DNA of 37,361 nt, taken from positions 1 through 37,361 of the IMG/VR virus record IMGVR_UViG_3300012211_000006; one strand, written 5' to 3'. Below, piece after piece: positions 3,526 to 32,907 of this stretch. Below the pieces are notes generated by a model. It had not been told where the DNA came from. It saw only the letters and a list, made by a program, of their open reading frames with translations, and did not search any database. This DNA comes from a virus. Both the position numbers and the translations under genes were made by a program. The number at the start of each line of letters is the position of its first letter. The first letter of the stretch is position 1.

Positions 3526-3969
3526 TTAGACTTCCATCAATTCCACTTCTTCCTGCTTCACTTCTACTACTTTCTCCCGAAAGTTAGGGTCAACGCTATC
3601 CAACCACTCCGCCAATCGTTCCAGGTTCCAATCTCCCCTTGTCATCACATGGTAATTAAACAAATGAACGAGCTCTAAAACTGCACACCCCTCCATATCG
3701 CTACGAAGCCCCCACTGCCCACTATCGCCCATCAACCTTTCTTCTTTGCAATCACAAGGCAATGAAAGCCCACTCTTATCCCACATCCACCAATATTGCG
3801 AAAGTGAACTCCCGTTCACCAAAGAGAAAGAATACAGGGAGAAGTACCTTTCATTATGTGCTGCTGCTATCATCCCCAGAGCACAACCACCACCTCTACC
3901 GTCATTCTGTTTTCCCATTACTGGACGAATTATTGTACTACCCAACAACATCGCTTCACTTGCTCTCAT
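3526..3969 (-). CDS. Conserved hypothetical protein (SEAMLLG...CALG family)
   Basis: 147 residues, ribosome site GAAGGAGGAG before the ATG. It starts MRASEAMLLGSTIIRP, then has a Gly/Cys segment (GRGGGCALGMIAAAH), a Trp/Cys central part (YWWMWDKSGLSLPCDCKEE) and a C-terminal helix ending in WNLERLAEWLDSVDP. The CxC and the earlier CALG resemble a small family of phage and bacterial proteins with a Cys pair and a 'HL...W-ER-A-W' tail, recalled not verified. It overlaps the end of the PurA-like gene by 14 bases, implying coupling. Confidence 0.75.
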   Translation of the reverse strand: MRASEAMLLGSTIIRPVMGKQNDGRGGGCALGMIAAAHNERYFSLYSFSLVNGSSLSQYWWMWDKSGLSLPCDCKEERLMGDSGQWGLRSDMEGCAVLELVHLFNYHVMTRGDWNLERLAEWLDSVDPNFREKVVEVKQEEVELMEV

Positions 3970-5137
3970 AGACTCCTCCTTCTTGAATTTGAACTTCTAC
4001 TCGTTTATCTATCTCTCTGTCTTTTGCTGTCGGTCCAAAGCCATGAATCAAAACAGGCACTTCCTTGAGAAGCTTCTGAGGTGAATCCATATATTTGTCC
4101 AGATGATTCAAAGCTACCGCATCTACACCATCACAGCACCGAAGGGCAAACTGAAAAGCCGCTCTGTCGAAAAAACCGGTTCTAAACTTCCCCTGAAAAC
4201 CGGAGCCACTGTTATGAAACTCTGGAGAAATTCTTAAGAAGTAATCGTCTTCATCTTTCAAAGGGCCATCTCCGTGCCTGGTAAAATAACTCCTAATCAC
4301 TCCGAGCCTACAAACTGAACCAACATATCCACACTCTTTCAACAACGTAAAAGCATTCTCAAACGTAGTATTCGTCCAACTATTAAATCCTTCTTCTCCA
4401 TACTTCTCATCCAGGAGAACTCCCTGTGCTCCCTCGAAGATCGTACAATCCGTTCCTTCTAACAAAGAAGCTAGCTCCAGAGAATCTACTATCGAAACTT
4501 TCTTTGCCCATTTCTGATAACAATCAGCGACCCAATCTATTGCCGCTGGCTCTTCTAGCACTCTCATTTCTTCCCGAATCTTTTCATCTCCTACTATGCC
4601 TTCTACCGCCTTTCTGGAAACTTGTTGCATAAATCTGAGCTTCATTTCCGATAGCCATTCCAGCTTCAAATCTCCTGCAAACAACACCCGCATTCCATAG
4701 CGAATGTGATCTGCCCTCGTCTGCCCCACTCCCTGTCCACAACTTGTATGCACCCCCAAAGCTAGCTGCTCTATACGATTCACCGCTTGTTGGAAGGGAG
4801 TTACGATTAACGCTTCTGCGTCGATTGTAGCCCTCTGGAACGCGTCAGAAACGCCAATTATATGAAGATGTTTCTCTTCCTCCACCATCGAAATTGGATT
4901 CACCAGCATGAATCGTGACAAGTGGGACTTAACACCTGTCACGAACATGCCGCTACCAAACTGAGAGAACGTATGGTGCCTGCCGTCGGAAGTAACTACG
5001 TTGTGAGCTGCTTGTGGTCCACCGTTATAACGAACCACCAGACCAGCTCCTTTCTCCCGAACGAGGAAGTCTACTGTTGCCCCCTTCCCTTCGTCACCAT
5101 ACGCCAAACCTGCTACTACATACACCTGCGTTGTCAC
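3956..5137 (-). CDS. Adenylosuccinate synthetase-like enzyme (PurA/PurZ superfamily)
   Basis: 393 residues from a GTG that overlaps the vWA gene's stop (GTGA). Residues 12-20 (AYGDEGKGA) form the GTP/IMP loop with the general-base Asp15. GGPQAAHNV at 39-47 carries the His equivalent to E. coli His41. FEGAQGVLLDE, a TRHGDGP motif and a late NHLDK are all family features. The family joins aspartate to a purine monophosphate using GTP. The sequence is divergent from housekeeping PurA (PQAAH in place of HNAGH; about 35 residues shorter) and resembles a second bacterial paralogue group. Phage PurZ, which makes the diaminopurine precursor from dGMP, is reported to lack the Asp; here it is kept, so dGMP use is not assured. 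Neither DatZ nor MazZ is in the window. Confidence 0.88.
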   Translation of the reverse strand: MTTQVYVVAGLAYGDEGKGATVDFLVREKGAGLVVRYNGGPQAAHNVVTSDGRHHTFSQFGSGMFVTGVKSHLSRFMLVNPISMVEEEKHLHIIGVSDAFQRATIDAEALIVTPFQQAVNRIEQLALGVHTSCGQGVGQTRADHIRYGMRVLFAGDLKLEWLSEMKLRFMQQVSRKAVEGIVGDEKIREEMRVLEEPAAIDWVADCYQKWAKKVSIVDSLELASLLEGTDCTIFEGAQGVLLDEKYGEEGFNSWTNTTFENAFTLLKECGYVGSVCRLGVIRSYFTRHGDGPLKDEDDYFLRISPEFHNSGSGFQGKFRTGFFDRAAFQFALRCCDGVDAVALNHLDKYMDSPQKLLKEVPVLIHGFGPTAKDREIDKRVEVQIQEGGVYESK

Positions 5138-10518: not shown

Positions 10519-10767
10519 CTAAAACCCAAAATAAGGAACTCCCTTAAACTCTTCCCAATCACTCTCTACACCAAAAGCCTCTATAACAAGTATATCTTGA
10601 GAACCAATTTCTATCTGCAAAGTCTTCTGCACTAATGGACTTACCAAATGTACCCAAGGGCCATGCATTCCATCATCCATAAAATCCAATTTCAAATACG
10701 CTTCCGGTAGCCAATCAGGTAACCTAACCCTCTCTATTCTTTTTTCTACTACTTCATCTATCGTCAT
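10519..10767 (-). CDS. Small hypothetical protein
   Basis: 82 residues overlapping the end of the SbcDC gene by 14 bases, with GAGGATGACAG upstream of the ATG. The sequence has an N-terminal helix (IDEVVEKRIERVRLPDWLPE), then beta-type segments (AYLKLDFMDDGMHGPWVHLV, LQIEIGSQDILVIEAFG). I do not recognise it. Coupling to sbcDC suggests a recombination-related or merely co-expressed role. Confidence 0.65.
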   Translation of the reverse strand: MTIDEVVEKRIERVRLPDWLPEAYLKLDFMDDGMHGPWVHLVSPLVQKTLQIEIGSQDILVIEAFGVESDWEEFKGVPYFGF

Positions 10768-13540
10768 CTGTCATCCTCGAAATCCCATTCTCTTTTACAA
10801 TCAAGACTCTTCTGGAATCCTCCAGCTCTGAAAGGATCTCCCCATTATGTGTCACACACAATATACAAGAGAACTTCTTAGTCACTTCTCGCAGCCCTCT
10901 AGCAAACTGCCTTGCGGATACAGGGTCTAGGCCGTCTCCGGGTTCATCCAAAATGAGCAAATTCGTCTTAGGTGCCACACTCCTTACCGCAAATGAAGTA
11001 ATCAAGCTAGCCATCTTCAATTCACCAGCGGACTGATCTTGGATATTTTCACCACCATGAGCATTGATCACTTGAGCATCCAAACTGCCTTCTTCATCCA
11101 CCACAAAATGTACTTGAATTTCTTTCTGGGCAAAAAGCTCTGCGTAGTAGTCCGCCTCTACATTCAACTGAGGCACTAATTGCTGATTTAGAAAAGCCGG
11201 AAGACCACCGCGCGAAAACACTTGTTCTGCGTAAAGCAAAACCCCCAACCAAGTCCTAAGCTTTATCTCCTTCTGCTTCTGCACTTGCATCTGTTCCAAA
11301 ATCCTCTCCCGCTTAACTTTCAACTGAAACAGCAAAGTCTTCTGCTTTTCAAAGTGCTCCAAATGAATCTTCGTTTCTCTCTTATCTTCTCTAGCCGCTG
11401 CAACTTTAGCTTCCAAAAACCGATTTCTACTCCAACGAACCAACTCCGAAGGAAGGTCCTGATCCACACTCGGCTCTTTCTTCTTTAGATCTTTCAGCTT
11501 CTCTTCTAACTGTTCTATAGATTTAATCAATTTCTGTCGCTCTCTCTTGACATGATCCCCTGTAATTTCCTGGCGGCAGACTGGGCAAATCCCCTTTAAC
11601 GAACTAAAGTCATCCAAACTATCTCGTAGCTGTACAAGCTGATTATGATAAGAAATCTTCTCAATCTCCCAATTCTTATGCCCCGCTCTCTGCTCTTCCA
11701 GCTGCTGCTCTATTTCAGTTCTACGTTTTTCTGCTTTTATCTCCCACTGCTTAAGTTCCTCCTCTGCCCGCTGTAAAACCGTAGCTGACGCCCTATAGGA
11801 TTTCTCAGGATTCGCTCCTACACCCAACGTTTTCTGAGCCTGAAGGAAAAGGAACTGAAGATTCTCTTTTTCGCTATAAAGCCTCTGTAGCGTCTCCTGT
11901 ACGGATGCTAATGAGCCTTCCAGAGACGTTTTCTCCTCTTTTACAAGTTTTCCAGCTCGCTCGAACCTTTCATTGTTCTGAAGCCGATTCAGAAAAGTCT
12001 TCCGCTCCGATTCTGTTCCCGTCAACATTAAATGTGTGCGCCCCTGATCTACGTAGATTGCATTGGATAAAGTCTCCCACGTGTAACCTACTGACTGCTC
12101 AATCAGCCGCTGTGTTGCTTCTGGTCTGTTCCCACTCTCAACCGGATCTCCATTGATAAAAAGCCGCAACTTCCTAGGCTGCCTACTCCTTTTGACAAAA
12201 ACTTTTCTTCCCTGCCCATCCTCCAGCCAAACCCCTACAAAGGATTTCTCATTCTTCTTGGTTCCTCTCCGTATCCAATGGTCATGTTTCTGCCCCTTAA
12301 ACGTTGTACCAAATAAAGCTACTGCTATAACGGCCAAGCTGCCCGATTTACCTGCGCCGTTTGATCTATTCCAGTCTTTATTTCTTCCTGCTACCACGCA
12401 AAGACCGGGGGTGAGTTCCCAGTCCAACTTCTTGAAACTCAAAAAGTTTTCTGCTGAATACTTTCTAAACCGTAACTCCCCACCCTCTCTAACCAGCCCA
12501 CCTGCTTGCTTCACTTGCTCCACTAGGTAACCCAAAACTCTTTTCTTATGAGGCTGCAACTCTCCGGGAAGCGTCCTCTTCAAATAGATTGCCAGCTTCT
12601 TCTGATCTGGATATTCCGCTTTTATCCCATCACTACTGAGTTCCCTTTCCATGATTTCTGGAATAACCAAAATCTCTGCACCAACGTACTTCTTCTCCGC
12701 CTTTTCTTTTGCTAAACGGAGAGCCCCCCCTATGTGCTTAGCATCTGCACATGGCACTTTTATTCTAATTCTAGCTCCTTCCCAAGTCTCCGGGGCCGAC
12801 TCCTCAAATCCTGGCCATGCAGGATCGTACCAACCTGGAATCTTTGATCTTATCTGCTGCAGCTTCTCTGTTTTCGTATCAAAGAGCAAATATCCTTTTC
12901 GCTGATTTGCTTCGCCCCAATCCGTAGCAAATGGGCTACCTACGTACCAGACGTTCTTTCCGACTCTATGCTGCAAGTGAATATGGCCTCCGATGCAGAT
13001 TCTGTATCTCTCGCAATATAAATCTTCAATAGATAGCTTCGAATCTGACTTTGCATGCACATTGTACTGTGCTCGTTTGACATCGCTATGAAAGACAAGA
13101 ATTGTCTTCTCACCTCTCCCAATTCTTGCCAAATCATACGCTTCCCTTCGCAGTAGGGTTTCACTAGCTCTAAAAGGCAACACTCTAAGGCTCCATCCAT
13201 CCGCCAACAAAATTCTAGCTGGGTCATCATAGGCTTCCGCTCCCGCTTTTCTCAGCACTGGAAACCAATTTTGTTTATCCACGTACATCCCCGTTCTGTC
13301 ATGATTTCCAAGGCAGATCACTACTTTGAGACCACCCTCTCTCAACTGGTCAATCGCTCTCAACGCGAAATTTGTTACCCTCACATCCACCGGATTATAA
13401 ACTTGCTTGACATCTCCACAGTGCACTAACAGCTGAAATCCCAGCTTTTTCTTCAAAGCCAGGATCTCAGCTATTACTTTTTGGCAGATCGGAATATTCT
13501 CCAACTCTATCTGCCAATCCGATGAGAACAAGAGACGCAT
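10754..13540 (-). CDS. Fused SbcD-SbcC (Mre11-Rad50) nuclease-ATPase
   Basis: 928 residues from MRLLFSSDWQIE, start chosen because the ATG lies next to the upstream stop at 13542; a longer frame to 13672 would overlap the upstream gene. The first ~300 residues are Mre11/SbcD: SSDWQ (the usual His after Asp is missing), HCGDV at 40-44, GNHD at 78-81, VFHSD and GGHIHLQ. The rest is SbcC/Rad50: a degenerate Walker A region with NGAGKSG, long coiled coils around one CPVC zinc hook, a QSAGELKMASL signature, Walker B LLILDEPGDGLD and a switch His (CVTHNGE). T4 encodes the two as gp47 and gp46. Here one chain carries both, fixing 1:1 stoichiometry. The role is end resection in recombination-dependent replication. 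Confidence 0.93.
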   Translation of the reverse strand: MRLLFSSDWQIELENIPICQKVIAEILALKKKLGFQLLVHCGDVKQVYNPVDVRVTNFALRAIDQLREGGLKVVICLGNHDRTGMYVDKQNWFPVLRKAGAEAYDDPARILLADGWSLRVLPFRASETLLRREAYDLARIGRGEKTILVFHSDVKRAQYNVHAKSDSKLSIEDLYCERYRICIGGHIHLQHRVGKNVWYVGSPFATDWGEANQRKGYLLFDTKTEKLQQIRSKIPGWYDPAWPGFEESAPETWEGARIRIKVPCADAKHIGGALRLAKEKAEKKYVGAEILVIPEIMERELSSDGIKAEYPDQKKLAIYLKRTLPGELQPHKKRVLGYLVEQVKQAGGLVREGGELRFRKYSAENFLSFKKLDWELTPGLCVVAGRNKDWNRSNGAGKSGSLAVIAVALFGTTFKGQKHDHWIRRGTKKNEKSFVGVWLEDGQGRKVFVKRSRQPRKLRLFINGDPVESGNRPEATQRLIEQSVGYTWETLSNAIYVDQGRTHLMLTGTESERKTFLNRLQNNERFERAGKLVKEEKTSLEGSLASVQETLQRLYSEKENLQFLFLQAQKTLGVGANPEKSYRASATVLQRAEEELKQWEIKAEKRRTEIEQQLEEQRAGHKNWEIEKISYHNQLVQLRDSLDDFSSLKGICPVCRQEITGDHVKRERQKLIKSIEQLEEKLKDLKKKEPSVDQDLPSELVRWSRNRFLEAKVAAAREDKRETKIHLEHFEKQKTLLFQLKVKRERILEQMQVQKQKEIKLRTWLGVLLYAEQVFSRGGLPAFLNQQLVPQLNVEADYYAELFAQKEIQVHFVVDEEGSLDAQVINAHGGENIQDQSAGELKMASLITSFAVRSVAPKTNLLILDEPGDGLDPVSARQFARGLREVTKKFSCILCVTHNGEILSELEDSRRVLIVKENGISRMTDDDR

Positions 13541-13541
13541 G

Positions 13542-14234
13542 CTATCCCAGCTTCTCCATCTTCCTTCGTACCGTATAAAACATTTTTCTCTTTTCTTCTT
13601 TGGTGATTCGCCCTTCAAACTTAGGCTCGTTCCAAACCTCCAGATAGAACCTTTCCTTGCCAAGCACTGCAACCAGAAACGGATCTCTCAGAGGCACCTT
13701 TTTCACTTCCTCTATAAACAACTCAACCATGGGAATCTCTCTCTTCAACGTAACCGCCTTATTCAAAACAAACTCGGGAATTGGCTTCTCATATCTACCA
13801 ATCTGTGTCCAACCCCACTCGACTCTTACAGGACTTAGAGATCTTTTCTTTGGGGACTCGACATCTTCACCATCCTCGTAAGCATCCTTGACCTTCTTCG
13901 GCCTATCGTCATCATCCTCTTCATCGTCATCCTCTTCGTCCTCGTCATCCATCATAACTCTAGCTGCCCTACCATCTCCTTCCAAAATTACCTCCCTCTG
14001 CAACTTCTCTTCCAACACCTGCCTCTGATATCTTCTAATCTCATCCTCATCCAAAGTTTCCATCTGCAGCTTTGTCAGAGCTTCCCGCAAAGGCATACCC
14101 AACATCTGCTCTGCCAAGAGAGTATAACCCAAAACTGATTTCGCATCTCTCGCTAGCAACATCAGATCTTTCTGCATACTCAGCTCTTCCCCTGCTGGAA
14201 CTGCTCTTGCCAACGTGTCTATCGTTAACTTCAT
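13542..14234 (-). CDS. Acidic-linker protein; paralogue of the 9533-8997 product
   Basis: 230 residues, ribosome site AAAGGAGATACACT. The N-terminal ~100 residues are helical, followed by a strongly acidic stretch of Asp/Glu (about 110-125), a basic/Ser patch (PKKRSLSPVRVEW) and a C-terminal domain (IPEFVLNKAVTL, DPFLVAVLGKERFYLEVW, NEPKFEGR) shared with the 9533-8997 protein. It lies between the clamp loader and SbcDC genes, overlapping the former by 4 bases. An acidic linker plus a small folded domain would suit a replication accessory protein. Function is unknown. Confidence 0.75.
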   Translation of the reverse strand: MKLTIDTLARAVPAGEELSMQKDLMLLARDAKSVLGYTLLAEQMLGMPLREALTKLQMETLDEDEIRRYQRQVLEEKLQREVILEGDGRAARVMMDDEDEEDDDEEDDDDRPKKVKDAYEDGEDVESPKKRSLSPVRVEWGWTQIGRYEKPIPEFVLNKAVTLKREIPMVELFIEEVKKVPLRDPFLVAVLGKERFYLEVWNEPKFEGRITKEEKRKMFYTVRRKMEKLG

Positions 14235-16478: not shown

Positions 16479-17522
16479 CTAAAGATCATCCTCATCTTCA
16501 TCCTTGGGCTTTTTCTTACTCTTCGGTTTCTCTTCCTCTTCTTCGTCTTCCTCTACTTCTTCTTCCTCCTTTACTTTCTTCTTACCCTTTGGTTTTTCTT
16601 CCTCCTCTTCGTCTAAATCCGGGAAGCTATCATCCTCTTCTTCGTCTTCCTCTACTTCTTCTTCCTCCTTTACTTTCTTCTTACCCTTTGGTTTTTCTTC
16701 CTCCTCTTCGTCAATCTCTTCCTCTTCGTCCTCTACAACTTTGGACTTCTTTTTCCCTTTCGGCTTCTCTTCCTCTTCTTCAGACTCCTCTACTTCTTCC
16801 TCCTCATCCTTTGACTTCTTTTTCTTGGGAGTCTCTTCTTCCGTATCCAACTCTTCTTCCTCTTCTGTCTCTACAGCTGCCTCCTCTTCGTCTTCTTGCT
16901 CATGCCCATAATACGCGGCTTTCATCTGAGATTCATCGTACTTCCTAACTACTTCTGAAAATGGACGAAGCCTCTTGAGGATTTCCTCTGGAGCTTTAGA
17001 CCTATCTTCATCTCGTTCCAAGCTACCATAACGCGTGTCTCTCATGCCCGTTCCGCTACGAGTTATCGTAAGATTGTAGCCTTTCTTAATGTCCACTATG
17101 TCATGTCTGCTTATAATTCCAAGCAGACCGTTTGCTAAGCTCTGAGGCATCTCCCAAAGAGCTGGACCCAACCATTTCTCGGAGTCCTCTTCTTTGTAAG
17201 CAATTTGGATTGCAAACACATCTCTACGAGCCATTCGTTCCGCTGCTTGCCTACGGATCGACTTACCAGATTTCTCCAACTTGGGAATTATGGTATCACA
17301 AAGGAAGCATTCTCCAGACCCATTCTTCTTTTTTCCACAGCGAAGATAGGCTTTCTTAGGACCCACCTCACTGTGCATTCCGTAGTCAATGTAGTCTGGC
17401 CTGTCTTCACCAGCTGGATTCGGGAGAAGCCGAAATGTCGTAACCCCTTCTGATAATTTAAACCGCTTACGTGAGGTCCTCTCTTTCAACAATTCTTTTG
17501 CAGCAGCCTTCTTGTCTACCAT
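16479..17522 (-). CDS. Single-stranded DNA-binding protein with long acidic/basic repeat tail
   Basis: 347 residues, ribosome site AGGAAGG. The N-terminal ~210 residues are a gp32-like core: FKLSEGVTTFRLLP, PDYIDYGMHSEVG, a probable zinc site using C82, C92 and C95 (LRCGKKKNGSGECFLC), and GYNLTITRSGTG. The remaining ~130 residues alternate Glu runs with KPKGKKKVK blocks. Two blocks come from a perfect 73 bp DNA repeat 99 bp apart, so each repeat is 33 codons. In phage SSBs an acidic tail recruits polymerase, recombinase and helicase; here several basic patches interrupt it, which is unusual. Adjacent to recA. Confidence 0.82.
   Translation of the reverse strand: MVDKKAAAKELLKERTSRKRFKLSEGVTTFRLLPNPAGEDRPDYIDYGMHSEVGPKKAYLRCGKKKNGSGECFLCDTIIPKLEKSGKSIRRQAAERMARRDVFAIQIAYKEEDSEKWLGPALWEMPQSLANGLLGIISRHDIVDIKKGYNLTITRSGTGMRDTRYGSLERDEDRSKAPEEILKRLRPFSEVVRKYDESQMKAAYYGHEQEDEEEAAVETEEEEELDTEEETPKKKKSKDEEEEVEESEEEEEKPKGKKKSKVVEDEEEEIDEEEEEKPKGKKKVKEEEEVEEDEEEDDSFPDLDEEEEEKPKGKKKVKEEEEVEEDEEEEEKPKSKKKPKDEDEDDL
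16541..16613. repeat. 73 bp perfect direct repeat, copy 1
   Basis: Identical to 16640-16712, offset 99 bp (33 codons), inside the SSB tail. It encodes alternating Glu-rich and KPKGKKKVK segments. The offset is a multiple of three, so unequal exchange would change the tail length without a frameshift. Confidence 0.9.
16640..16712. repeat. 73 bp perfect direct repeat, copy 2
   Basis: Partner of 16541-16613 in the SSB tail. Confidence 0.9.
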
Positions 17523-18336: not shown

Positions 18337-19230
18337 TCAAACTGCATCTGCCGCCATCTGTACTTTCAAACTCTTCTCAAACTTTCTATTCTCAGCGCAC
18401 CAATTTTCCAGAAACTCATCCGGAGACTCTCCCATATAATCCTTCACCAACGTACCCATTCTAAAGCCAGCTTTACCTTCCGCTTTGAGTGGAATCTTCC
18501 AATCCAACTTGGGCCAATGCTTCTTTACATAGAGTAACGTATCCTTCTCAAGAATCTGAACTCCTTGCTTAAAAGCTTCCGGCAAATTCTTCAAAGCTAC
18601 AAACGCTGCCAGAGAGTCATGGATTTCCATGCACATGCGCTGCCACAGATGATACGTTACTTTCTTCAACTCCATTACTGCCAACGAAATCAACAGCAAC
18701 TGATGTGCTGTCCCCTGAATTGGGCTATTCACAGATTGATTGCGCCAAAAAGTCGTTCTATCTTCCTCCACCGCCTGAGAAATTTCTCGCCTGAATCCGA
18801 ACAAAGTCTCCACATATCCGTTCGTCTGTGCGAATTCTACCTGAGCGTCTAACCATTTCTTCACGCCAGAAAACCTAGCGAAATAACGATTGTAGAGTCT
18901 CTCCACATCTTCCATTGTCATCGTAAACTTTTCGTGCCGCTCTGCTGCCTCTGTCTTCAACTTCGCATAGAGAGTCTTCGGTACCAATCCATAGATAATT
19001 CCAAAATGCAAACCCTTGACCGCTGTTCTCGTCTCTCTATCCGTCTTAATCTTAGCCAAGGATATATTCGTTAACTCGTGCCCAACCGCCGCATGTAAAT
19101 CTTCCCCCGATAGGATCAGCTCCGTCAAGAGCTTATCTCCAGACATCTGAGCCAAAACCCGTATCTCCAACTGTGCGTGATCTAAGGACAAAAACACATC
19201 CGCGTCAGCGTATTTTTCTGCCAAGGTCAT
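18337..19230 (-). CDS. Family A DNA polymerase, C-terminal part (palm and fingers)
   Basis: 297 residues starting MTLAEKYADADVFLSLDH. Motif A is VFLSLDHAQLEIRVLAQMSGD (residues ~12-32; catalytic Asp in SLD). The O-helix motif B is RTAVKGLHFGIIYG, with the usual Arg, Lys, Phe and Tyr-Gly. Motif C is CMEIHDSL, with HDS in place of the common HDE. It lacks the exonuclease and thumb, which are encoded by the separate gene at 21287-19380. The two must associate to give a polymerase. The break falls between the TGRLRS/NLQN region and motif A, with a 66-codon frame occupying the gap. This is either a genuine split polymerase or a recent disruption. Confidence 0.92.
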   Translation of the reverse strand: MTLAEKYADADVFLSLDHAQLEIRVLAQMSGDKLLTELILSGEDLHAAVGHELTNISLAKIKTDRETRTAVKGLHFGIIYGLVPKTLYAKLKTEAAERHEKFTMTMEDVERLYNRYFARFSGVKKWLDAQVEFAQTNGYVETLFGFRREISQAVEEDRTTFWRNQSVNSPIQGTAHQLLLISLAVMELKKVTYHLWQRMCMEIHDSLAAFVALKNLPEAFKQGVQILEKDTLLYVKKHWPKLDWKIPLKAEGKAGFRMGTLVKDYMGESPDEFLENWCAENRKFEKSLKVQMAADAV

Positions 19231-19405
19231 CTGCTTTCATCTCCGAATAAATATCAAATTTTAGTTGCACTAGAGCATCCGATGCCCCTTTGCAAGCGGT
19301 AGCCATTACTGTCACCCACTGCAGATAGATATCCAGCGACCTTAGAAGCAATAGCAAATTCCTATCCCAGTCTTTCTTCTTAGTTTTCTTTTTCTTTTTC
19401 GGCAT
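19205..19405 (-). CDS. 66-residue basic ORF bridging the split polymerase
   Basis: The product starts MPKKKKKTKKKDWDRNLLLL and continues with a hydrophobic/helical segment and an amphipathic tail. It overlaps the end of the polymerase N-terminal gene and the start of the C-terminal gene, so all three frames are interlocked. The Lys-rich start could bind DNA. It may be an insertion that split an ancestral polymerase gene or a linker subunit. It could also be non-coding; coding evidence is only its overlap pattern and length. Confidence 0.5.
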   Translation of the reverse strand: MPKKKKKTKKKDWDRNLLLLLRSLDIYLQWVTVMATACKGASDALVQLKFDIYSEMKADDLGRKIR

Positions 19406-21287
19406 TCTTTTTCCTCTCCAACCAATCTCTATAAATGCTTCTCCAACGAAGATCTGAAACGAGTAGATTTTCTATTGCCGGATCTCCATGAACGTTCTGC
19501 AAGTTCACTATACCGCGTGTTTTGTCCCTCGATCCACCAGAGCGAAGCCTACCCGTAATCGTCCCGGTTAGCCACCAAGACGTTTTCAATCTGCCTTCAT
19601 GCAACTCTGCTGATTTCCTAAATCCCTTCATATAGGTCGACTCTTTCTTCGATAGCTTTCTGAACACATCAACCAAACCAGGAAACGGATGGTAGGAGCT
19701 CAGCATTTGCATCGTATCATGATTGGTAGTTCTTTGCCCATGTTCCTTCCTCCACCATTCATCCAAATGCTCTCCCAACTGTAACTTATCATAGACCATC
19801 TCCGCTACCTGTCCCGGAGCGTTGGGATTGAACTTCGGATTCCCTGCCATCTCCTTCAGTTTATTCTTCAGTTTTTCCAGCTTTACCGGAATCCATTTCT
19901 GCAAGAGTTCATCGTGCTTGGAGTCAAACAGTGGACCATTGTTCTCCATCCTAGCCAAAGGGTATGCCGCTCGGATGAACACCTGCAACAGCTCCCAATT
20001 CACCTTACCAGCATTATCCATTTCAATCCTCTTGGTCAGATCGCAATCCGCCCCGTTATACCGAACTATAATCTCAGGAGGCACTTTCAGAAATGAAGCC
20101 AAACCCGTTTTCTTATCTCGGTACGGTTCTAAAATCTCCTTATATCCAGCAAACTCCCTAAACCGTACATCCGCTATCGCCTCCAAACCAAACGCTTTTC
20201 TCCCAGAGAATCTCAGATACTCAGAATATTGAGTATCATGATCATATCCTCTGACTTTGATCCCAAGCAGCTGCTCCAACTTACTCACATCGTAAGAGCC
20301 ATGCTGAAATGCTTTTTTGATTGAGCCATCTTCCAAGATCTTCTTCAGCAAAGCCAATTTTATCTTCACTGCCTCTTTCGACTGCTTGATAGCCGAATGC
20401 TCCAAAAACACTCCTCTAGCTTCCCCAACTTTCCAAGAGAATCCAACATAGACGATTACATTTCTATCCCCGTCCCAATCGTCTTCAATATCTACTACGA
20501 TTCTCTCTCCTTTCGAAGCCGCCGCTAGAAGAGGCTCCGTTATCTCCACATCGAGTTGCTTAGCCGTAACTGATTTATAATCCCGTGCCTCTATATAGGC
20601 AAACTTCCCCCCATCTTCCTTCGCTTTTTTTACCACGATTTCCAAGGCTTCTCGAAATTCTGCCAATTTTGACTTCGGACCACCTCTCAAGAAATAGCTA
20701 GGATGATACGTGCAAACCACCCAAGCATTCAGCCGCTTGGAGTAAAAAGTCTTCTGATCTTTGCGATACTCTCCTTTCAGAAGGGCTTTCATCGCCACTT
20801 TACCCAACACCAAGTGCACTTTTGCCTTACCTTGATTTATTTTGATTGCTTCTTCTGTATAAATAGAACAGCAGTGAATCTCCTCTTTACTAGGCTCTCT
20901 TGGAATCAGCTGATCCAACTCATTCACATCTACCGTCCAACATCTTACAACGTTCTGCAAACCACAATCCTCCCGTTTCAAGCCAACCTTTGCTGCCTCC
21001 GCCCACAATAACTTTCCCGCTGGGCCAACTAGCTCCATTCTTTTTATGTTCTCCAACTCCCCCGGATTCTGAGCCCATATCATAATTTTCTTCCCAACTA
21101 CCTTTTCCAAGTTCATAACCTTATGAAGGCCATGAACTTTGTTTAACGGACAGAACTCACAGCCGCGACCTTTCTTTGGCTTCGCCGAAGCTATCCGCTG
21201 CCTTTTCTCCCTTGGCTTTCCTACTTTAGCAGGGGAAATCTTATCTACCGACTGACCAAAATCTAAAGCTGAGCCAAACTTAATCAT
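19380..21287 (-). CDS. Family A DNA polymerase N-terminal part with Fe-S uracil-DNA-glycosylase-like and 3'-5' exonuclease domains
   Basis: 635 residues; ATGA overlap with the cupin gene. Residues ~40-210 resemble family 4 uracil-DNA glycosylases: C43-x2-C46, NPGELE, VGPAGKLLW, NVVRCW (C116), C139/140 and TYHPSYFLRG. The four cysteine positions match the 4Fe-4S ligands. Residues ~245-420 are a DEDD 3'-5' exonuclease (VVDIED, FQHGSYDVSKL, YNGADCDLTKR). The end has the thumb and TGTITGRLRSGG...NLQN motif and then stops, before motif A. SPO1-type phage polymerases are also reported to carry a UDG-like domain. Here the catalytic palm is encoded separately at 19230-18337. The UDG domain could recognise uracil ahead of the fork or be structural. 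Confidence 0.9.
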   Translation of the reverse strand: MIKFGSALDFGQSVDKISPAKVGKPREKRQRIASAKPKKGRGCEFCPLNKVHGLHKVMNLEKVVGKKIMIWAQNPGELENIKRMELVGPAGKLLWAEAAKVGLKREDCGLQNVVRCWTVDVNELDQLIPREPSKEEIHCCSIYTEEAIKINQGKAKVHLVLGKVAMKALLKGEYRKDQKTFYSKRLNAWVVCTYHPSYFLRGGPKSKLAEFREALEIVVKKAKEDGGKFAYIEARDYKSVTAKQLDVEITEPLLAAASKGERIVVDIEDDWDGDRNVIVYVGFSWKVGEARGVFLEHSAIKQSKEAVKIKLALLKKILEDGSIKKAFQHGSYDVSKLEQLLGIKVRGYDHDTQYSEYLRFSGRKAFGLEAIADVRFREFAGYKEILEPYRDKKTGLASFLKVPPEIIVRYNGADCDLTKRIEMDNAGKVNWELLQVFIRAAYPLARMENNGPLFDSKHDELLQKWIPVKLEKLKNKLKEMAGNPKFNPNAPGQVAEMVYDKLQLGEHLDEWWRKEHGQRTTNHDTMQMLSSYHPFPGLVDVFRKLSKKESTYMKGFRKSAELHEGRLKTSWWLTGTITGRLRSGGSRDKTRGIVNLQNVHGDPAIENLLVSDLRWRSIYRDWLERKKNAEKEKEN

Positions 21288-22985: not shown

Positions 22986-23645
22986 CTACCAATCCGTTCT
23001 AGGCACATCTGCCCTAACACTAGCTAAAAATTCTTCTCGCACCGAGGGCCTAAAAAATACGCCACGAAGAGCCGTTGTCGTCGTAACCGCTGCTTTCTTG
23101 ACTCCTCTCATTTCCATACACAGATGCCGACCACGAATTAAGCACGCTACTCCCCTCGGATATAAGCCATTCTGCAGCGCTTCTGCTATCTCGGCTGTAG
23201 TATCTTCTTGAAGAGCTGGTTTCTTCGCTAGCAATTCCGCCAATCTAGCCAACTTGGACAAACCCAACACTTTTTTCTTGGGAACGTAAGCTAACCACAC
23301 TTGCATCTTCAACGGTAAAAAATGGTGCGGACAAACAGACCAAGCCTCGATTGGGCCCACTGTAATCATCTCCGAGGACTTAGCTGGAAACGTCTTGGCT
23401 AAAATCTCTTTCACCTGCTCTCCATTGGCCATCAAGCCAGAGAAAATTTCACAATAAGCTCTAGCTACACGCTCTGGAGTCTCTCTAAAATTAGGCCCTA
23501 ATTCATCCAAACCAAATTCTCGACCCATAGAACCCAAAATCTCGCGCATGCACTGAGCTACTATAACCTCAAATCTATGCTTCTTTGCCGCCAAAGCCGT
23601 AAACGGATCTTCCTGCTTCGAAACGAACTTCTTGATTGCAGTCAC
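22986..23645 (-). CDS. folE: GTP cyclohydrolase I
   Basis: Converts GTP to 7,8-dihydroneopterin triphosphate, the first step of both folate and 7-deazaguanine (queuosine/preQ0) synthesis. The motifs are complete: FRETPERVARAYCEIFSG, AWSVCPHHFLPL (zinc Cys and His), GLSKLARL, QEDTTAEIAEAL and RGRHLCMEMRGVKK followed by TTTTALRGVF, with the second zinc Cys. About 219 residues from the GTG 5 bases after the dpdA-like stop, which has GAGG overlapping that stop; a TTG at 23669 is also open. Its direct coupling to the DpdA-like gene indicates supply of preQ0-type precursors for DNA modification. QueC, QueD and QueE are not in this window. Confidence 0.95.
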   Translation of the reverse strand: MTAIKKFVSKQEDPFTALAAKKHRFEVIVAQCMREILGSMGREFGLDELGPNFRETPERVARAYCEIFSGLMANGEQVKEILAKTFPAKSSEMITVGPIEAWSVCPHHFLPLKMQVWLAYVPKKKVLGLSKLARLAELLAKKPALQEDTTAEIAEALQNGLYPRGVACLIRGRHLCMEMRGVKKAAVTTTTALRGVFFRPSVREEFLASVRADVPRTDW

Positions 23646-23650
23646 TTTCC

Positions 23651-24703
23651 TCAAAGAGCTGACCCCCAACTAACGTGGGTACTTTTCTCCATTCTAGGTT
23701 TATACCAGTCATTCATATGGCTAAATATCCAGCCATTGAAAATGAAACGATACGCCAATGATCTTCTCAGCAAATCAAAGTCCCAACCCAATTTTTCTAC
23801 GTAACTTTGCACTGACTTCAAAGCTTCTGGAGCTAACGTAGTGATTGAATTCTTACTTGTACTTTGCTTCAATCCTCCTGTTAATGAAACGTGAATCGTG
23901 CCCAGAGATCCTCTATCCGGATCCATCGAGATAATCGCTCCGTAACTTGCTGTCCGTGACCATGAACTGCTATCAACGCTATACCAAGGGTACGCATATG
24001 TCAGAGCTATCGAAGTAAGACCAAAGCCGTGCATTTTCACATGATAGCCTTCTATGGCCCTAAAAACTTCGTCCAAGCACCTTCTCGCCCCTTTGTACGT
24101 CATCCTCTTACCTACACCAGGAGACATACCTATTCTCTTGTAACCAAGATCCAGATATTTCTTCAGCCAATCTATCGAAGCATCGCCATGATAAATTGGC
24201 ACTGGATTCAACCCTTTTTCTCTTAACACTTTCGTCATCTTCCAAACTATCTCTGCCTTCGGAGCGTAATCGAAGGTGACGTAGAAATCCCAATCCTTTT
24301 TTCTTTTCTTGCAGAAGTGAACATACTTGTCCACCGTATCTAGCCTCAACTTATCTATATCTGTCACATCTTTCCGCTTCACCAGAAATTGCTGAAACGA
24401 AAAAGCTCCGGAATCCATCATAATATGATTACAGTGCTCCACATCCACTTCATAAGCTTCTAAGGCTCTAGGAGACCAATAAATTGCCTCTGGGTCTAAG
24501 TATACATAAGAAAAACACCTATATCTCACTCCGCTACATTTCAGAAACTCTTCTTCCAACTCTCTCGTATGAACAACCGTATGAGACAAATAGATCCTCG
24601 GACTAGCATCTGCTTGAGGGGCAATCTTTGGAACTATCCCTTCGGCTAGCTTCAGCTTTTCTGTTTTTCTTGCCTTCCACCGGCCAGATGCACTACCTAG
24701 CAT
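23651..24703 (-). CDS. dpdA-like: DpdA-like DNA transglycosylase (TGT family)
   Basis: 350 residues, ribosome site TTGGAGAAGAA. MMDSGAFSFQQFL at 95-107 carries the DSGAFS active-site motif of DpdA/TGT enzymes; WDFYVTFDYAPKAEIVWK and IGMSPGVGKRMTYKGARR are barrel segments. HGFGLTSIALTYAYPWYSVDSSSW matches a DpdA-typical region with a likely catalytic or binding Asp. DpdA exchanges guanine in DNA for a 7-deazaguanine such as preQ0. Phages with it are resistant to many restriction enzymes. The folE gene follows within 6 bases, supporting the pathway. It could alternatively act on tRNA, but the sequence is closer to DNA-modifying DpdA as I recall it. Confidence 0.85.
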   Translation of the reverse strand: MLGSASGRWKARKTEKLKLAEGIVPKIAPQADASPRIYLSHTVVHTRELEEEFLKCSGVRYRCFSYVYLDPEAIYWSPRALEAYEVDVEHCNHIMMDSGAFSFQQFLVKRKDVTDIDKLRLDTVDKYVHFCKKRKKDWDFYVTFDYAPKAEIVWKMTKVLREKGLNPVPIYHGDASIDWLKKYLDLGYKRIGMSPGVGKRMTYKGARRCLDEVFRAIEGYHVKMHGFGLTSIALTYAYPWYSVDSSSWSRTASYGAIISMDPDRGSLGTIHVSLTGGLKQSTSKNSITTLAPEALKSVQSYVEKLGWDFDLLRRSLAYRFIFNGWIFSHMNDWYKPRMEKSTHVSWGSAL

Positions 24704-29760: not shown

Positions 29761-30276
29761 CTACTGCTTCCTCTTACCTCTTTTCTGCCGGGAGGTCGCA
29801 GATCTGATCATCCTCCTACTTCTAACTCTCACCACCTCCCGGACCGCTCCCACTTCTACCATCAGCCTATCTACCTCTTCTTCCAAGCCGAGTACTATCG
29901 CTACCCCCTTAGCTCTAGCCAGGATATCCGCTACTCTCTGAAATTCCGACAGCAACACTTCCATGGACTGTTCTGAGTCTGACCTGATCTTACTGACATG
30001 CCAATATCCTTGCTCCTGTCCAGGAATATGCACATAGGCCACCGTCTCTACTTCCTTTTCCTCTACGATGCTAATGACCCGTACGCTGCGGATGATTTCC
30101 CGAGCTGTTTCCAACCAATGCTGCTCCGCTGCTTTTCGCACATCCCATTCAAACTGATCATGGAGTGGGCTGGTGGGATTCTTTGCATCTTCTATTACCA
30201 AGTTCGGAGTCAGAAGCCCATGCTGCTGATACAGATCGTTCACTCTTTGTCTAATTGCCGGTGTCTCTCTGATCAT
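29761..30276 (-). CDS. Conserved phage protein (SPLH-FEWD motif)
   Basis: 171 residues, ribosome site AAAGGAGAG. It has the pattern common to a phage family of unknown function: VIEDAKNPTSPLHDQFEWDVRKAAEQHWLETAREIIRSV, then YVHIPGQEQGYWHV and a helical, Val-rich and finally very basic C-terminus (RSRRMIRSATSRQKRGKRKQ). The basic tail suggests nucleic-acid binding. It is the first gene after array A, and its ribosome site begins about 20 bases beyond the array edge. Confidence 0.75.
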   Translation of the reverse strand: MIRETPAIRQRVNDLYQQHGLLTPNLVIEDAKNPTSPLHDQFEWDVRKAAEQHWLETAREIIRSVRVISIVEEKEVETVAYVHIPGQEQGYWHVSKIRSDSEQSMEVLLSEFQRVADILARAKGVAIVLGLEEEVDRLMVEVGAVREVVRVRSRRMIRSATSRQKRGKRKQ

Positions 30277-30309
30277 CGTTCTCTCTCCTTTATTCTCATA
30301 GCTAACCGC

Positions 30310-30725
30310 AGCTCATCCTAGCAAAACGAACCGCTCCGGTCCTCTTCTCATCTGCCTAAACGAACCAGATCTCATCTGACCTATTCATTCCGTAACCCAC
30401 CACATCTGCCACACTAGATCCCAGCTAAACATTTCTTAGGCCAACAACCCGAACCATATCTGCCTAACCAAACCAGATTGTATCTGAGCCCTTCAGAGCT
30501 CTGCTGAACGCTGCGTCCGTTTCAAACCCGACGTGATCTGCCGAGCCGCTGCGAAGCCAACCGCTACTAGCGCTGAGCACCGGAGCTAATCTGCCCGAGT
30601 AGACCAGAGCCGAACACATCATAGCCAAACATCTCCGTGCACCCGAGACCGCAACTCATCTGCCATTTCTTTCCGAACCTTAGCCCCTCCAACCATGAAA
30701 AAGCACAACGCATCTGCCAAATCAA
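30310..30725 (-). repeat. Pentamer-coded array A (7 ATCTGCC punctuations)
   Basis: There is no gene here. On the plus strand the sequence falls into pentamers N-C-N-N-A/T for long stretches; for example nine of nine pentamers after the anchor at 30350 have C at position 2 and A/T at position 5. Exact ATCTGCC anchors start at 30350, 30404, 30458, 30536, 30589, 30658 and 30712 (spacings 54, 54, 78, 53, 69, 54). On the transcript strand this reads A/T-N-N-G-N with GGCAGAT punctuation. The array ends about 30 bases before the 30276 gene. About 60 bases at its other side, next to the 30786 stop, are not clearly in phase. See array B and findings. Confidence 0.85.
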
Positions 30726-30785
30726 AACCAGATCTGAGGGACCTTCTTATCGAAGAACCCCCAGATCCGTCAAACGCGCTCCTTA

Positions 30786-31640
30786 CTAAGCCAACTGACT
30801 CTCTGAACTCTCCTCTACTTCTTGCCCGTTCGGCTTGGTGGTCGACGCTTCCTGGGTCCCCATCTGGAGAGTCTTGGTGAAACCTCTCCGAACCATTTCT
30901 TTGTTGTACCAGTGATACAACTCCTCTGTTTCCGCATTGTAGAATGTCGGACTCAGCATCGCTGCTTCCTGCGCCTTTCTTCCACCGGTCTTGAGAATTT
31001 CCAACAACTCTGGATCATTGGCCGACACCGGCTTAAACTGCCCGTAGTTCGCCAACCCCTTCTCCGAACGGAAGTCCCCGACGCCGATGTAAATCCCTCC
31101 AGCCTGAAGCAAGCCCATGATCACCTTGTCCTGAATCAATGGAACCACATAGGAAATCGACAACTTGGCTGCCCATTTGGGAAGGATCGGTCTACTTCGT
31201 ATATCTGGCGTTCTGTTGATATCAGAGTTTCTCACCACGGACATGAGCAACTGGGGAATCCCATAAATCGAAACCATCTCCCCTTCCACGTAAGTCAGTC
31301 TGCCGATGACCGCCTTCTTGGTTCCGGGCAGATCCAACGCGGCATTTCTCAACGCCCCCTTGAAACACATCGAAGGCAGCGCCAACAAAGTAGGTCCCGT
31401 TTGCAACATGTGTGCAGCCGCTCTGAACTCTTCCAGAACCATATGCTTGGGAGAAGAGCTTTTGTCCGCCTGATTCTTCTTCGGAGGAGGCTGCAACAAC
31501 TGCTGCTTCGCTTTCTCCGCCATGCGATTGACAATCATGGGTTCTGTGCCCAAAATGTAAGCTATGAGCCTCCCTTTCTTGACCTGTGGCAATGAAATCT
31601 CCAACGGAATTTCTTGCTCCTCTACATTCTTTTTTCTCAT
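30786..31640 (-). CDS. RAMP/Cas7-like protein flanked by pentamer arrays
   Basis: 284 residues, ribosome site AAAAGGAGAAG. After a first strand (GRLIAYILGTEPMIVNRM) come LLALPSMCFKGALRNAALDLPG and later GGIYIGVGDFRSEKGLANYGQF. These resemble the N-terminal strand, the 'P-S-KG-LR' helix start and the glycine-rich loop of RAMP (Cas7-type) RNA-binding proteins. RNRTPDI-R-ILP and the WYNKEMVRRGF tail look conserved in related phage proteins as I recall. No nuclease motif is evident, and the C-terminal tail is polar and disordered. Lying between two arrays with 5-nt periodicity, it is the obvious candidate to bind their transcripts. The RAMP assignment is by eye and could be wrong. Confidence 0.6.
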   Translation of the reverse strand: MRKKNVEEQEIPLEISLPQVKKGRLIAYILGTEPMIVNRMAEKAKQQLLQPPPKKNQADKSSSPKHMVLEEFRAAAHMLQTGPTLLALPSMCFKGALRNAALDLPGTKKAVIGRLTYVEGEMVSIYGIPQLLMSVVRNSDINRTPDIRSRPILPKWAAKLSISYVVPLIQDKVIMGLLQAGGIYIGVGDFRSEKGLANYGQFKPVSANDPELLEILKTGGRKAQEAAMLSPTFYNAETEELYHWYNKEMVRRGFTKTLQMGTQEASTTKPNGQEVEESSESQLA

Positions 31641-31689
31641 CGTTCTTCTCCTTTTATTTTAGTTGCCTTACCGTTCCATTCCATAGCTC

Positions 31690-32810
31690 CGCTCTCTGAC
31701 CGTATCGCAACTAAGCCAACCATTTCTGCCAAACCAACTGCTAACGACCCTAAGCACAGCCTAACTAAGCCAAACCACTTCTGCCTTAGCTTTCGCATCG
31801 GAGCATAACGGAGCTGCACTTATCCGAGCCCATCGCAACCCAACTGCCGAACTTTCCCAACCATTTCTCAGCTAAGCTCGCCTTTTCAGAGCCACCACTA
31901 CCGCAACGCCTCTGCCTGTCCTAAACTGACCAGAGCTCAACAAATCCCAATATACCTTATCCCATCTGCCATAGCTCTTCTTAACCGAGCTATCCGGAAC
32001 GATCCTTTGCCGAAGAAACCAAATCTAATCTGCCACACCATAGCGGAGCCAACTGTGCCTCCTCTCTTCTTACCGCATCGAAACTGAGCAAGTCGCAACT
32101 CATCTGCCAGACCGTACTCACCAGAACTATGCTTGTCAAAGCACTACGTAACCTGCCACCGCTAACCGTAACTGCCTAAGGCAAGCCAACCATAGCCTAG
32201 ACCAACCTATCCGAGCTATCCACATCCGATCTGCCATAGCACCACCGACCATAACATCCCCTACGCCACCACTACAACGCTGACCATGCCTAATCTGCCA
32301 CATCGGACCACTCCTCTACTCACCACTAACTTCCTCTTCATCTCATAGCCGAGCTCTCCAGATCTGCCACGGTATACCAATCCACACTGCGTCCAAGCCC
32401 AACTTATCTTATCTGCCTCACCAGAGCTAAGTCTTCCAATTCGCAACAGAGCCAAACCCAACTTACCCGATCTGCCGGGCCAGAGTATAGCCAAGCTGAA
32501 ACCACCATAACTACCTGAGCAAACTATATCTGCCACTCCATATCCAAACGAAGTCTGAGCTTACCTCTTCAGAGAATATCGAAACAGCTCGTTCCGTAAC
32601 ACATCTGCCTAACCACTTCTCAGCTCAGCACATCCAAGCCCAGCAAGGCACTTCATATCTCAACCAACCTCATCTGCCACATCAAAACTTTTCTAAGCTA
32701 AGCCAACTCACCCAACCACATCTGCCAGATCGCAACGCAGCTCCACTCATCGCTGCAAAACTCATTACCTCGAAGGCTAAACAGATCTGCCATACCGAAT
32801 CTAAACGTAG
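31690..32810 (-). repeat. Pentamer-coded array B (about 19 punctuations, 13 exact)
   Basis: A 1.1 kb stretch with no gene. Exact ATCTGCC starts: 31964, 32028, 32102, 32229, 32293, 32362, 32411, 32470, 32528, 32603, 32672, 32720 and 32785. Variants (TTCTGCC, AACTGCC, CTCTGCC, ACCTGCC) are at 31724, 31779, 31842, 31910, 32151 and 32170. Spacings are 48-75 (one 19), most of them 5n+4 (49, 54, 59, 64, 69, 74). Between anchors C recurs every fifth base and A/T three bases later: 11 of 12 pentamers in the unit at 31964, 13 of 14 in the unit at 32028, 11 of 12 at 32293. The sequences otherwise differ from unit to unit. The plus strand is C-rich and G-poor. Confidence 0.9.
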
Positions 32811-32873
32811 GCGTTTTATCTCTTCGAAGCTAACCAGACCGTTACTTCGAAACAGTTATACAAGAATCGAATT

Positions 32874-32907
32874 GAGAGAAATCAGTGAATCGTTTCTGAT
32901 TTCTCTC
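32874..32907 (-). terminator. 12 bp perfect hairpin overlapping a stop codon
   Basis: GAGAGAAATCAG pairs perfectly with CTGATTTCTCTC around a 10-base loop. The stop of the 33085-32882 gene lies in the stem. No T-run follows. It marks the upstream edge of array B and may be a processing site or a factor-dependent terminator separating upstream mRNA from the array RNA. Confidence 0.7.

What the first reader, a model, noticed from the sequence alone, without database searches (positions are those of the whole stretch)
30310..32810. Two pentamer-coded, punctuated non-coding arrays flanking a RAMP-like gene
Seen directly: arrays A and B are not coding and obey a 5-base rule. On the plus strand pentamers read N-C-N-N-A/T with 80-100% agreement at position 2 in the units I checked. 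They are interrupted by the heptamer ATCTGCC (GGCAGAT on the transcript strand), about 26 copies in total. Anchor spacings are mostly 5n+4, meaning 9-14 pentamers per unit plus one 4-mer. Three positions of each pentamer vary freely, so each unit carries different sequence under a fixed scaffold. This is not a CRISPR layout. Precedents for regular short-period RNA binding are Cas7 filaments (6 nt, five plus one flipped) and TRAP rings (triplets every 5 nt, 11 per ring); unit lengths of 9-14 pentamers recall the latter. A RAMP-like protein encoded between the arrays may coat the transcripts. Inference: a new phage ribonucleoprotein system using variable 50-75 nt RNAs, either guides or decoys.
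Basis: partly seen in the sequence, partly recalled or inferred. Interest (0 to 1): 0.95.

Follow-up and report, generated by a model that had tools for sequence, protein, structure and literature searches.

The report
Phage VIPR guide-RNA arrays, variant scaffold
This virus fragment carries a VIPR system, the recently described phage-borne relative of CRISPR that reads DNA through pairs of bases spaced along a five-base RNA scaffold, in a variant with a looser scaffold and long, punctuated, many-guide arrays.

Summary
Two non-coding arrays flank a gene, and on the transcribed (minus) strand they follow a strict five-base rule, NN-G-N-T/A. G-periodicity stands 8.5 and 15.7 SD above dinucleotide shuffles. 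A heptamer GGCAG(A/T)N punctuates them 26 times, 20 as GGCAGAT. The system is no longer unknown: it is a VIPR locus (Viral Interference Programmable Repeat; preprint PMC13142463, April 2026). The window protein and the published SUSP1 Vipr belong to one family (phrog_4652), and a profile of the window's relatives hits the solved SUSP1 Vipr structure. In IMG/VR, 61 of 66 homologous loci carry adjacent pentamer arrays; 60 also carry the same accessory gene. Three points I did not find in the preprint's main text (supplements unreadable here): (1) across this clade, units of about 10 pentamers are separated by a conserved one-base-short pentamer, G(G/T)C-n-G, in the window GGC-A-GAT; (2) the window scaffold is relaxed to G-N-W; (3) the variable dinucleotides match codon-position-1-2 usage in the sense frame (r = 0.89), as expected for guides that skip wobble bases. 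No target was identified for the window units.

The parts
31655..32848 (-). Array B: leader of vipr, about 16-17 punctuated units of NN-G-N-W pentamers (predicted vrRNA precursor)
   Evidence: HMM and Viterbi decoding; z = 15.7
30786..31640 (-). vipr: 284-aa RAMP (Cas7/Csm3 fold), phrog_4652, G-rich loop GVGDFRSEKG
   Evidence: PHROG E 1.8e-11; profile hits PDB 36pp SUSP1 Vipr E 1.7e-5; Foldseek Csm3/RAMP
30300..30718 (-). Array A: between vipr and vap, 7 punctuated units (predicted vrRNA precursor)
   Evidence: z = 8.5
29761..30276 (-). vap: VIPR accessory gene homologue, phrog_15946, 171 aa, function unknown
   Evidence: E 1.2e-14; homologue found in 60 of the 66 related loci, next to vipr; alignment A2
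32785..32791 (-). First (5'-most) exact GGCAGAT punctuator of array B; 12 further exact copies down to 31964
30712..30718 (-). First (5'-most) exact GGCAGAT punctuator of array A; 6 further exact copies down to 30350

Best explanation
A phage VIPR locus. One minus-strand transcript carries array B, vipr, array A and vap. The arrays are precursors of about 22 guide RNAs (vrRNAs), each about 10 pentamers. Vipr, a single-RRM Cas7-like RAMP, coats the RNA one subunit per pentamer, holding the fixed G-N-W and exposing the variable dinucleotide NN. The NN pairs read double-stranded DNA as NNx, NNx, ... (one base skipped, usually the codon wobble base) and silence genes of competing phages or satellites. 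The GGC-A-GAT punctuator, a pentamer with one variable base instead of two, marks unit boundaries, probably where the precursor is cut or the filament ends. Shown here: periodicity, punctuation, gene family, fold, conservation, codon-like NN usage. Inferred from the published SUSP1 work: RNA binding, 1-nt-skip DNA recognition, silencing. Inferred here without test: one subunit per pentamer, processing at the punctuator, and operon transcription.
For: Same PHROG family as the published SUSP1 Vipr; profile of 45 relatives hits PDB 36pp 'SUSP1 Vipr protein' at E 1.7e-5; AF2 model (pLDDT 79) matches Csm3/Cas7-type RAMPs, E 7e-6. Arrays sit beside vipr in SUSP1, Saal, ODay, Ecliptus and 61 of 66 IMG/VR or MAG loci, almost all on the same strand; of the five without, four are cut at or just after vipr by contig ends. 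vap found in 60 of 66. Units of about 10 pentamers against 9-16 published. NN usage of 3,939 pairs tracks codon positions 1-2 in sense: r = 0.89, against -0.02 antisense and -0.23 to 0.59 for other frames; the residual beyond base composition has r = 0.78, best of 576 label permutations. One unit shared by two viruses (L013_u3 / L026_u1) keeps 22 of 22 NN bases while 8 of 33 scaffold bases differ (p = 0.011).
Against: No target found for five window units in IMG/VR (flanking pairs were checked for the first four) or in 42 related records for the one window unit tried. The window's own NN usage fits codon positions 1-2 less well (r = 0.61, 239 pairs) and is not better than a fitted independent model or a uniform one. 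Position 4 is free, unlike the published GGY, and its correlation with position 2 is unexplained. No transcript data.
Confidence: 0.9

Rival explanations
1. VIPR-type ribonucleoprotein, but the guides of this variant are read differently: base 4 is also read, so three bases per pentamer pair with a contiguous target.
For: Position 4 is free only in the window; three free positions per pentamer equal three target bases per step.
Against: Position 4 does not behave as a third codon base (all z < 1.2); in about 60 relatives position 4 is fixed or restricted while NN stays codon-like.
Confidence: 0.08
2. The arrays are protein-binding decoys or attenuators (TRAP-like): Vipr coats the leaders of vipr and vap to autoregulate, with no base-pairing role for the variable bases.
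For: In the window each array ends at the ribosome-binding site of the next gene.
Against: Order is vipr-vap-array in 46 related loci, so arrays are usually not leaders; NN usage is codon-like; one shared unit conserves NN while the scaffold drifts; SUSP1 vrRNAs are DNA guides (PMC13142463).
Confidence: 0.05
3. DNA-level element (centromere, origin or packaging site) with phased bases, unrelated to RNA.
For: Long non-coding repeats near replication genes.
Against: Strand follows the vipr gene in nearly all relatives and arrays are tied to vipr; five-base phase is broken every unit; no fixed repeat sequence.
Confidence: 0.02
4. Simple or degenerate satellite DNA produced by replication slippage, without function.
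For: Pentamer periodicity and low sequence complexity of the scaffold.
Against: Tandem Repeats Finder finds no array there; NN positions are diverse and codon-like; punctuators and gene order are conserved across dozens of viruses.
Confidence: 0.01

Closest known systems
VIPR, Escherichia phage SUSP1 and P. fulva prophage (type II; PMC13142463)
   Same: RAMP of phrog_4652, pentamer vrRNAs with hypervariable NN alternating with a fixed G-led triplet, adjacent accessory gene, arrays beside vipr, units of 9-16 pentamers
   Different: Scaffold G-N-W instead of GGY; continuous punctuated arrays of about 22 units instead of 4 separate vrRNAs with structured 3' tails; vap is phrog_15946, not phrog_5926
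VIPR-like loci of actinophages Saal (Mycobacterium), ODay and Ecliptus (Gordonia)
   Same: phrog_4652 plus phrog_15946, and the same one-base-short punctuator GGC-A-GGC
   Different: Strict GGY scaffold, 3-5 units, about 27% Vipr identity
Class 1 CRISPR Cas7/Csm3 filaments
   Same: RAMP fold, glycine-rich loop, Foldseek E 7e-6
   Different: No palindromic repeats, contiguous spacers or cas genes; 5-nt instead of 6-nt repeat; non-contiguous code
TRAP/trp leader
   Same: Regular 5-nt spacing of a G-containing motif (own knowledge)
   Different: No TRAP homologue; long variable arrays; variable bases carry codon-like information

Membership tests
VIPR | Vipr: RAMP homologue of the SUSP1 Vipr lineage | tested here: met
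   phrog_4652 for window and SUSP1; profile hit to PDB 36pp SUSP1 Vipr E 1.7e-5; Csm3/Cas7 fold
VIPR | vrRNA: tandem pentamers, hypervariable NN alternating with GGY 'or a related consensus' | tested here: met
   NN-G-N-W in the window, NNGGY or NNGTT etc. in relatives; strict GGY is not met in the window, which fits only the 'related consensus' wording
VIPR | 9-16 pentamers per vrRNA | tested here: met
   Median 10, most full units 9-14
VIPR | Minimal locus: vipr, vap, long intergenic arrays, in phage genomes | tested here: met
   no cas genes or CRISPR seen
VIPR | 1-nt-skip (NNx) DNA targets | tested here: inconclusive
   No window target found; indirect support from codon-position usage
VIPR | Invariant structured 3' tail on each vrRNA (seen in SUSP1/P. 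fulva type II) | tested here: not met
   Units abut through GGC-A-GAT with no tail. The preprint says array architectures vary by type, so this argues against type II, not against VIPR
VIPR | Expression and Vipr binding of vrRNAs | not testable with these tools
   Needs small-RNA sequencing and pull-down
CRISPR-Cas class 1 | Palindromic direct repeats with contiguous spacers and cas operon | tested here: not met
   No tandem repeat called in the arrays; no cas gene among the window ORFs scanned
TRAP-bound leader | (G/U)AG triplets bound by a TRAP ring | tested here: not met
   Base before the invariant G is free; the adjacent protein is a RAMP, not TRAP

The most novel reading that the evidence does not exclude
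An undescribed VIPR subtype in which guides are stored as long continuous arrays (about 22 units in the window, about 45 in L033) cut at a clade-wide one-base-short pentamer, G(G/T)C-n-G, and in which, in the window lineage, the scaffold has relaxed to G-N-W so that the fourth base is free and co-varies with the guide base two before it.
Probability: 0.4. Interest if true: 0.75.

Novelty: new variant of a known kind. Interest (0 to 1): 0.6.

Why it matters
VIPR is proposed as an ancestor of CRISPR. The window plus about 65 related loci extend it to uncultivated phages with much larger guide arrays, show that only one scaffold base (G) is truly fixed, expose a clade-wide punctuation mark that should define guide boundaries, and give target-free evidence that guides read codon positions 1-2. 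These give concrete rules for decoding guides and finding targets in metagenomes, and they tell an experimenter which scaffold bases can be changed.

Tried and rejected
Global Fourier analysis (no peak because of phase resets). Blastn of the region against phages (no match). Relatives by the window DnaB (none). Target search of 391 units in about 1.4 Mb of fetched DNA (both strands) at skip 0, 1 and 2: real equals shuffled; the skip-3 matches are the arrays matching themselves. Five exact NNx scans of IMG/VR: 10, 13, 12, 1 and 2 hits. For the first four units the flanking pairs did not match beyond chance; best were 19/20 for u21 in L087/L095 (an antisense overlap) and 22/26 for u8 in L103. 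The two hits of the fifth unit (u18) were not followed. Unit 8 decodes as EWEIVFGWVDDVY and hits IVFGWVDD-type motifs, three of them in terminase large subunits: a lead only. Position 4 as a third read base: no support. Rfam ribozymes (hammerhead arrays are reported in VIPR): none in window or 11 relatives. Promoter/terminator scan at chance level.

Full report
OBSERVATION. Arrays A and B exist at the stated places and obey a five-base rule on the minus strand. A cyclic HMM with five states explains them far better than shuffled sequence, and periods 4, 6 and 7 do not. The mean fraction of G at five-base spacing is 8.5 (A) and 15.7 (B) SD above dinucleotide shuffles, and the top windows of the whole record all fall on these arrays. 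The scaffold read on the transcript is N-N-G-N-T/A. The heptamer GGCAGAT is present 20 times in the arrays with six one- or two-base variants, 26 in total; the record as a whole has 31 where 6.1 are expected. A plain Fourier test fails because every unit shifts the phase by one base.

PUNCTUATION. Viterbi decoding shows what the heptamer is: the triplet GGC of one pentamer, one variable base (A) where two are expected, and the triplet GAT of the next. The same one-base-short pentamer punctuates the arrays of relatives: GGC-A-GGC in most, GGC-T-GGC in L022, GGC-T-GAC in L002, GGC-G-GTC in L033, GTC-G-GTT in the NNGTT group, and GGC-A-GGY in phages Saal, ODay and Ecliptus. In the window and the NNGTT group the base before the single base is C in 62% and 76% of cases, against 5% and 3% inside units, so it is a sequence signal and not only a lost base. 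Units between marks have a median of 10 pentamers. SUSP1 does not show this mark; its vrRNAs are separate and carry tails (and PMC13142463).

IDENTITY. The 284-aa protein belongs to phrog_4652. [quoted passage not shown] A profile of 45 relatives of the window protein hits one chain in the whole PDB, 36pp 'SUSP1 Vipr protein', E 1.7e-5. The AlphaFold model (pLDDT 79) matches Csm3/Cas7-type chains of type III and VII complexes and gRAMP/Cas7-11 at the top of the PDB search. The downstream gene (29761-30276) is phrog_15946; its homologue was found in 60 of the 66 related loci, mostly in the order vipr, vap, array. My scan, run on the published SUSP1 record as a control, finds pentamer arrays only beside its vipr locus in 50 kb.

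RELATIVES. A scan of IMG/VR with an alignment of the window protein and L002 gave 65 loci, plus one MAG. Of these 66, 61 have a five-periodic array within 2.5 kb, on the strand of vipr; of the five without, four (L043, L054, L065, L066) are cut at or just after vipr by the contig end, and L063 is not. Some of the 66 are near-identical copies of one virus; duplicates were left out of the unit statistics. Scaffolds range from NNGGC/T through NNG(G/A)(C/T) to NNGTT; the window, NNGNW, is the only one in which position 4 is free.

HOW THE GUIDES ARE READ. The preprint reports that NN pairs match targets with one base skipped, usually the codon wobble base. Without any target I tested the corollary: NN usage should look like codon positions 1-2. 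Over 3,939 pairs in 358 units it does: r = 0.89 with sense codon positions 1-2 of ORFs on the same contigs, -0.02 antisense, -0.23 to 0.59 for other frames. After removing base composition the correlation is still 0.78, the best of 576 label permutations. ORFs of the same contigs stand in for the unknown targets, so this supports coding DNA as the source of guides but does not name it. A unit shared by two viruses (L013, L026) keeps all 22 NN bases while 8 of 33 scaffold bases differ (p = 0.011; the pair was chosen for NN similarity, so the p-value is optimistic). In the window alone the fit is weaker (r = 0.61).

TARGETS. None found. Five window units were searched as NNx patterns in IMG/VR, one in 42 related records, and all units in the DNA then fetched. 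Unit 8 spells EWEIVFGWVDDVY and its partial hits include terminase large subunits, which is a lead and not a result.

MECHANISM. Most likely the operon array B - vipr - array A - vap is transcribed as one RNA; Vipr coats the pentamers; the precursor is cut, or the filament ends, at the one-base-short pentamer; and each guide of about 10 pentamers (about 20 specifying bases) lets Vipr sit on rival phage DNA and block transcription. Array boundaries, family, fold and conservation are shown here; RNA binding, DNA recognition and silencing are taken from the SUSP1 experiments; processing and operon transcription are inferred.

NOVELTY. The kind is known since April 2026. This is a new member and, by scaffold and array architecture, a variant. 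The supplements of the preprint could not be opened, so I cannot say whether this clade is one of its seven types or its 'staggered arrays'.

Noticed in passing
window 3956-5137 (-): Adenylosuccinate synthetase of the phage PurZ type (phrog_1211, 2-aminoadenylosuccinate synthetase; Pfam Adenylsucc_synt E 9e-45): the phage may make 2-aminoadenine (Z) DNA.
   Followed up: no
window 23651-24703 and 22986-23669 (-): Queuine tRNA-ribosyltransferase-like protein (DpdA-like, phrog_887) next to GTP cyclohydrolase I: a 7-deazaguanine DNA modification is likely. With a PurZ-like gene, both purines might be modified in one genome.
   Followed up: no
window 18337-19230 and 19380-21287 (-): DNA polymerase A appears split over two ORFs; the upstream ORF joins a uracil-DNA-glycosylase domain, a 3'-5' exonuclease and the first part of the polymerase.
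   Followed up: no
window 10754-13672 (-): One 972-aa ORF carries both SbcD-like phosphoesterase and SbcC-like ATPase regions, apparently a fused SbcDC.
   Followed up: no
window 30300-32848: In the window arrays base 4 of the pentamer depends on base 2 (T2 with G4; A2 or G2 with C4; C2 almost never with C4; mutual information z = 8); not explained.
   Followed up: partly
L033 7400-9891 (same array in L034): A VIPR-type array of about 2.5 kb with about 45 punctuated units (GGC-G-GTC), far longer than the published examples in the main text.
   Followed up: partly
window 32874-32907: Perfect 12-bp inverted repeat (GAGAGAAATCAG) just upstream of array B on its transcript strand, read by eye from the sequence; possibly a transcript boundary.
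   Followed up: no
window 16534-16712: Exact 99-bp tandem repeat in the 3' part of the single-strand-binding-protein-like gene, encoding an acidic tail.
   Followed up: no
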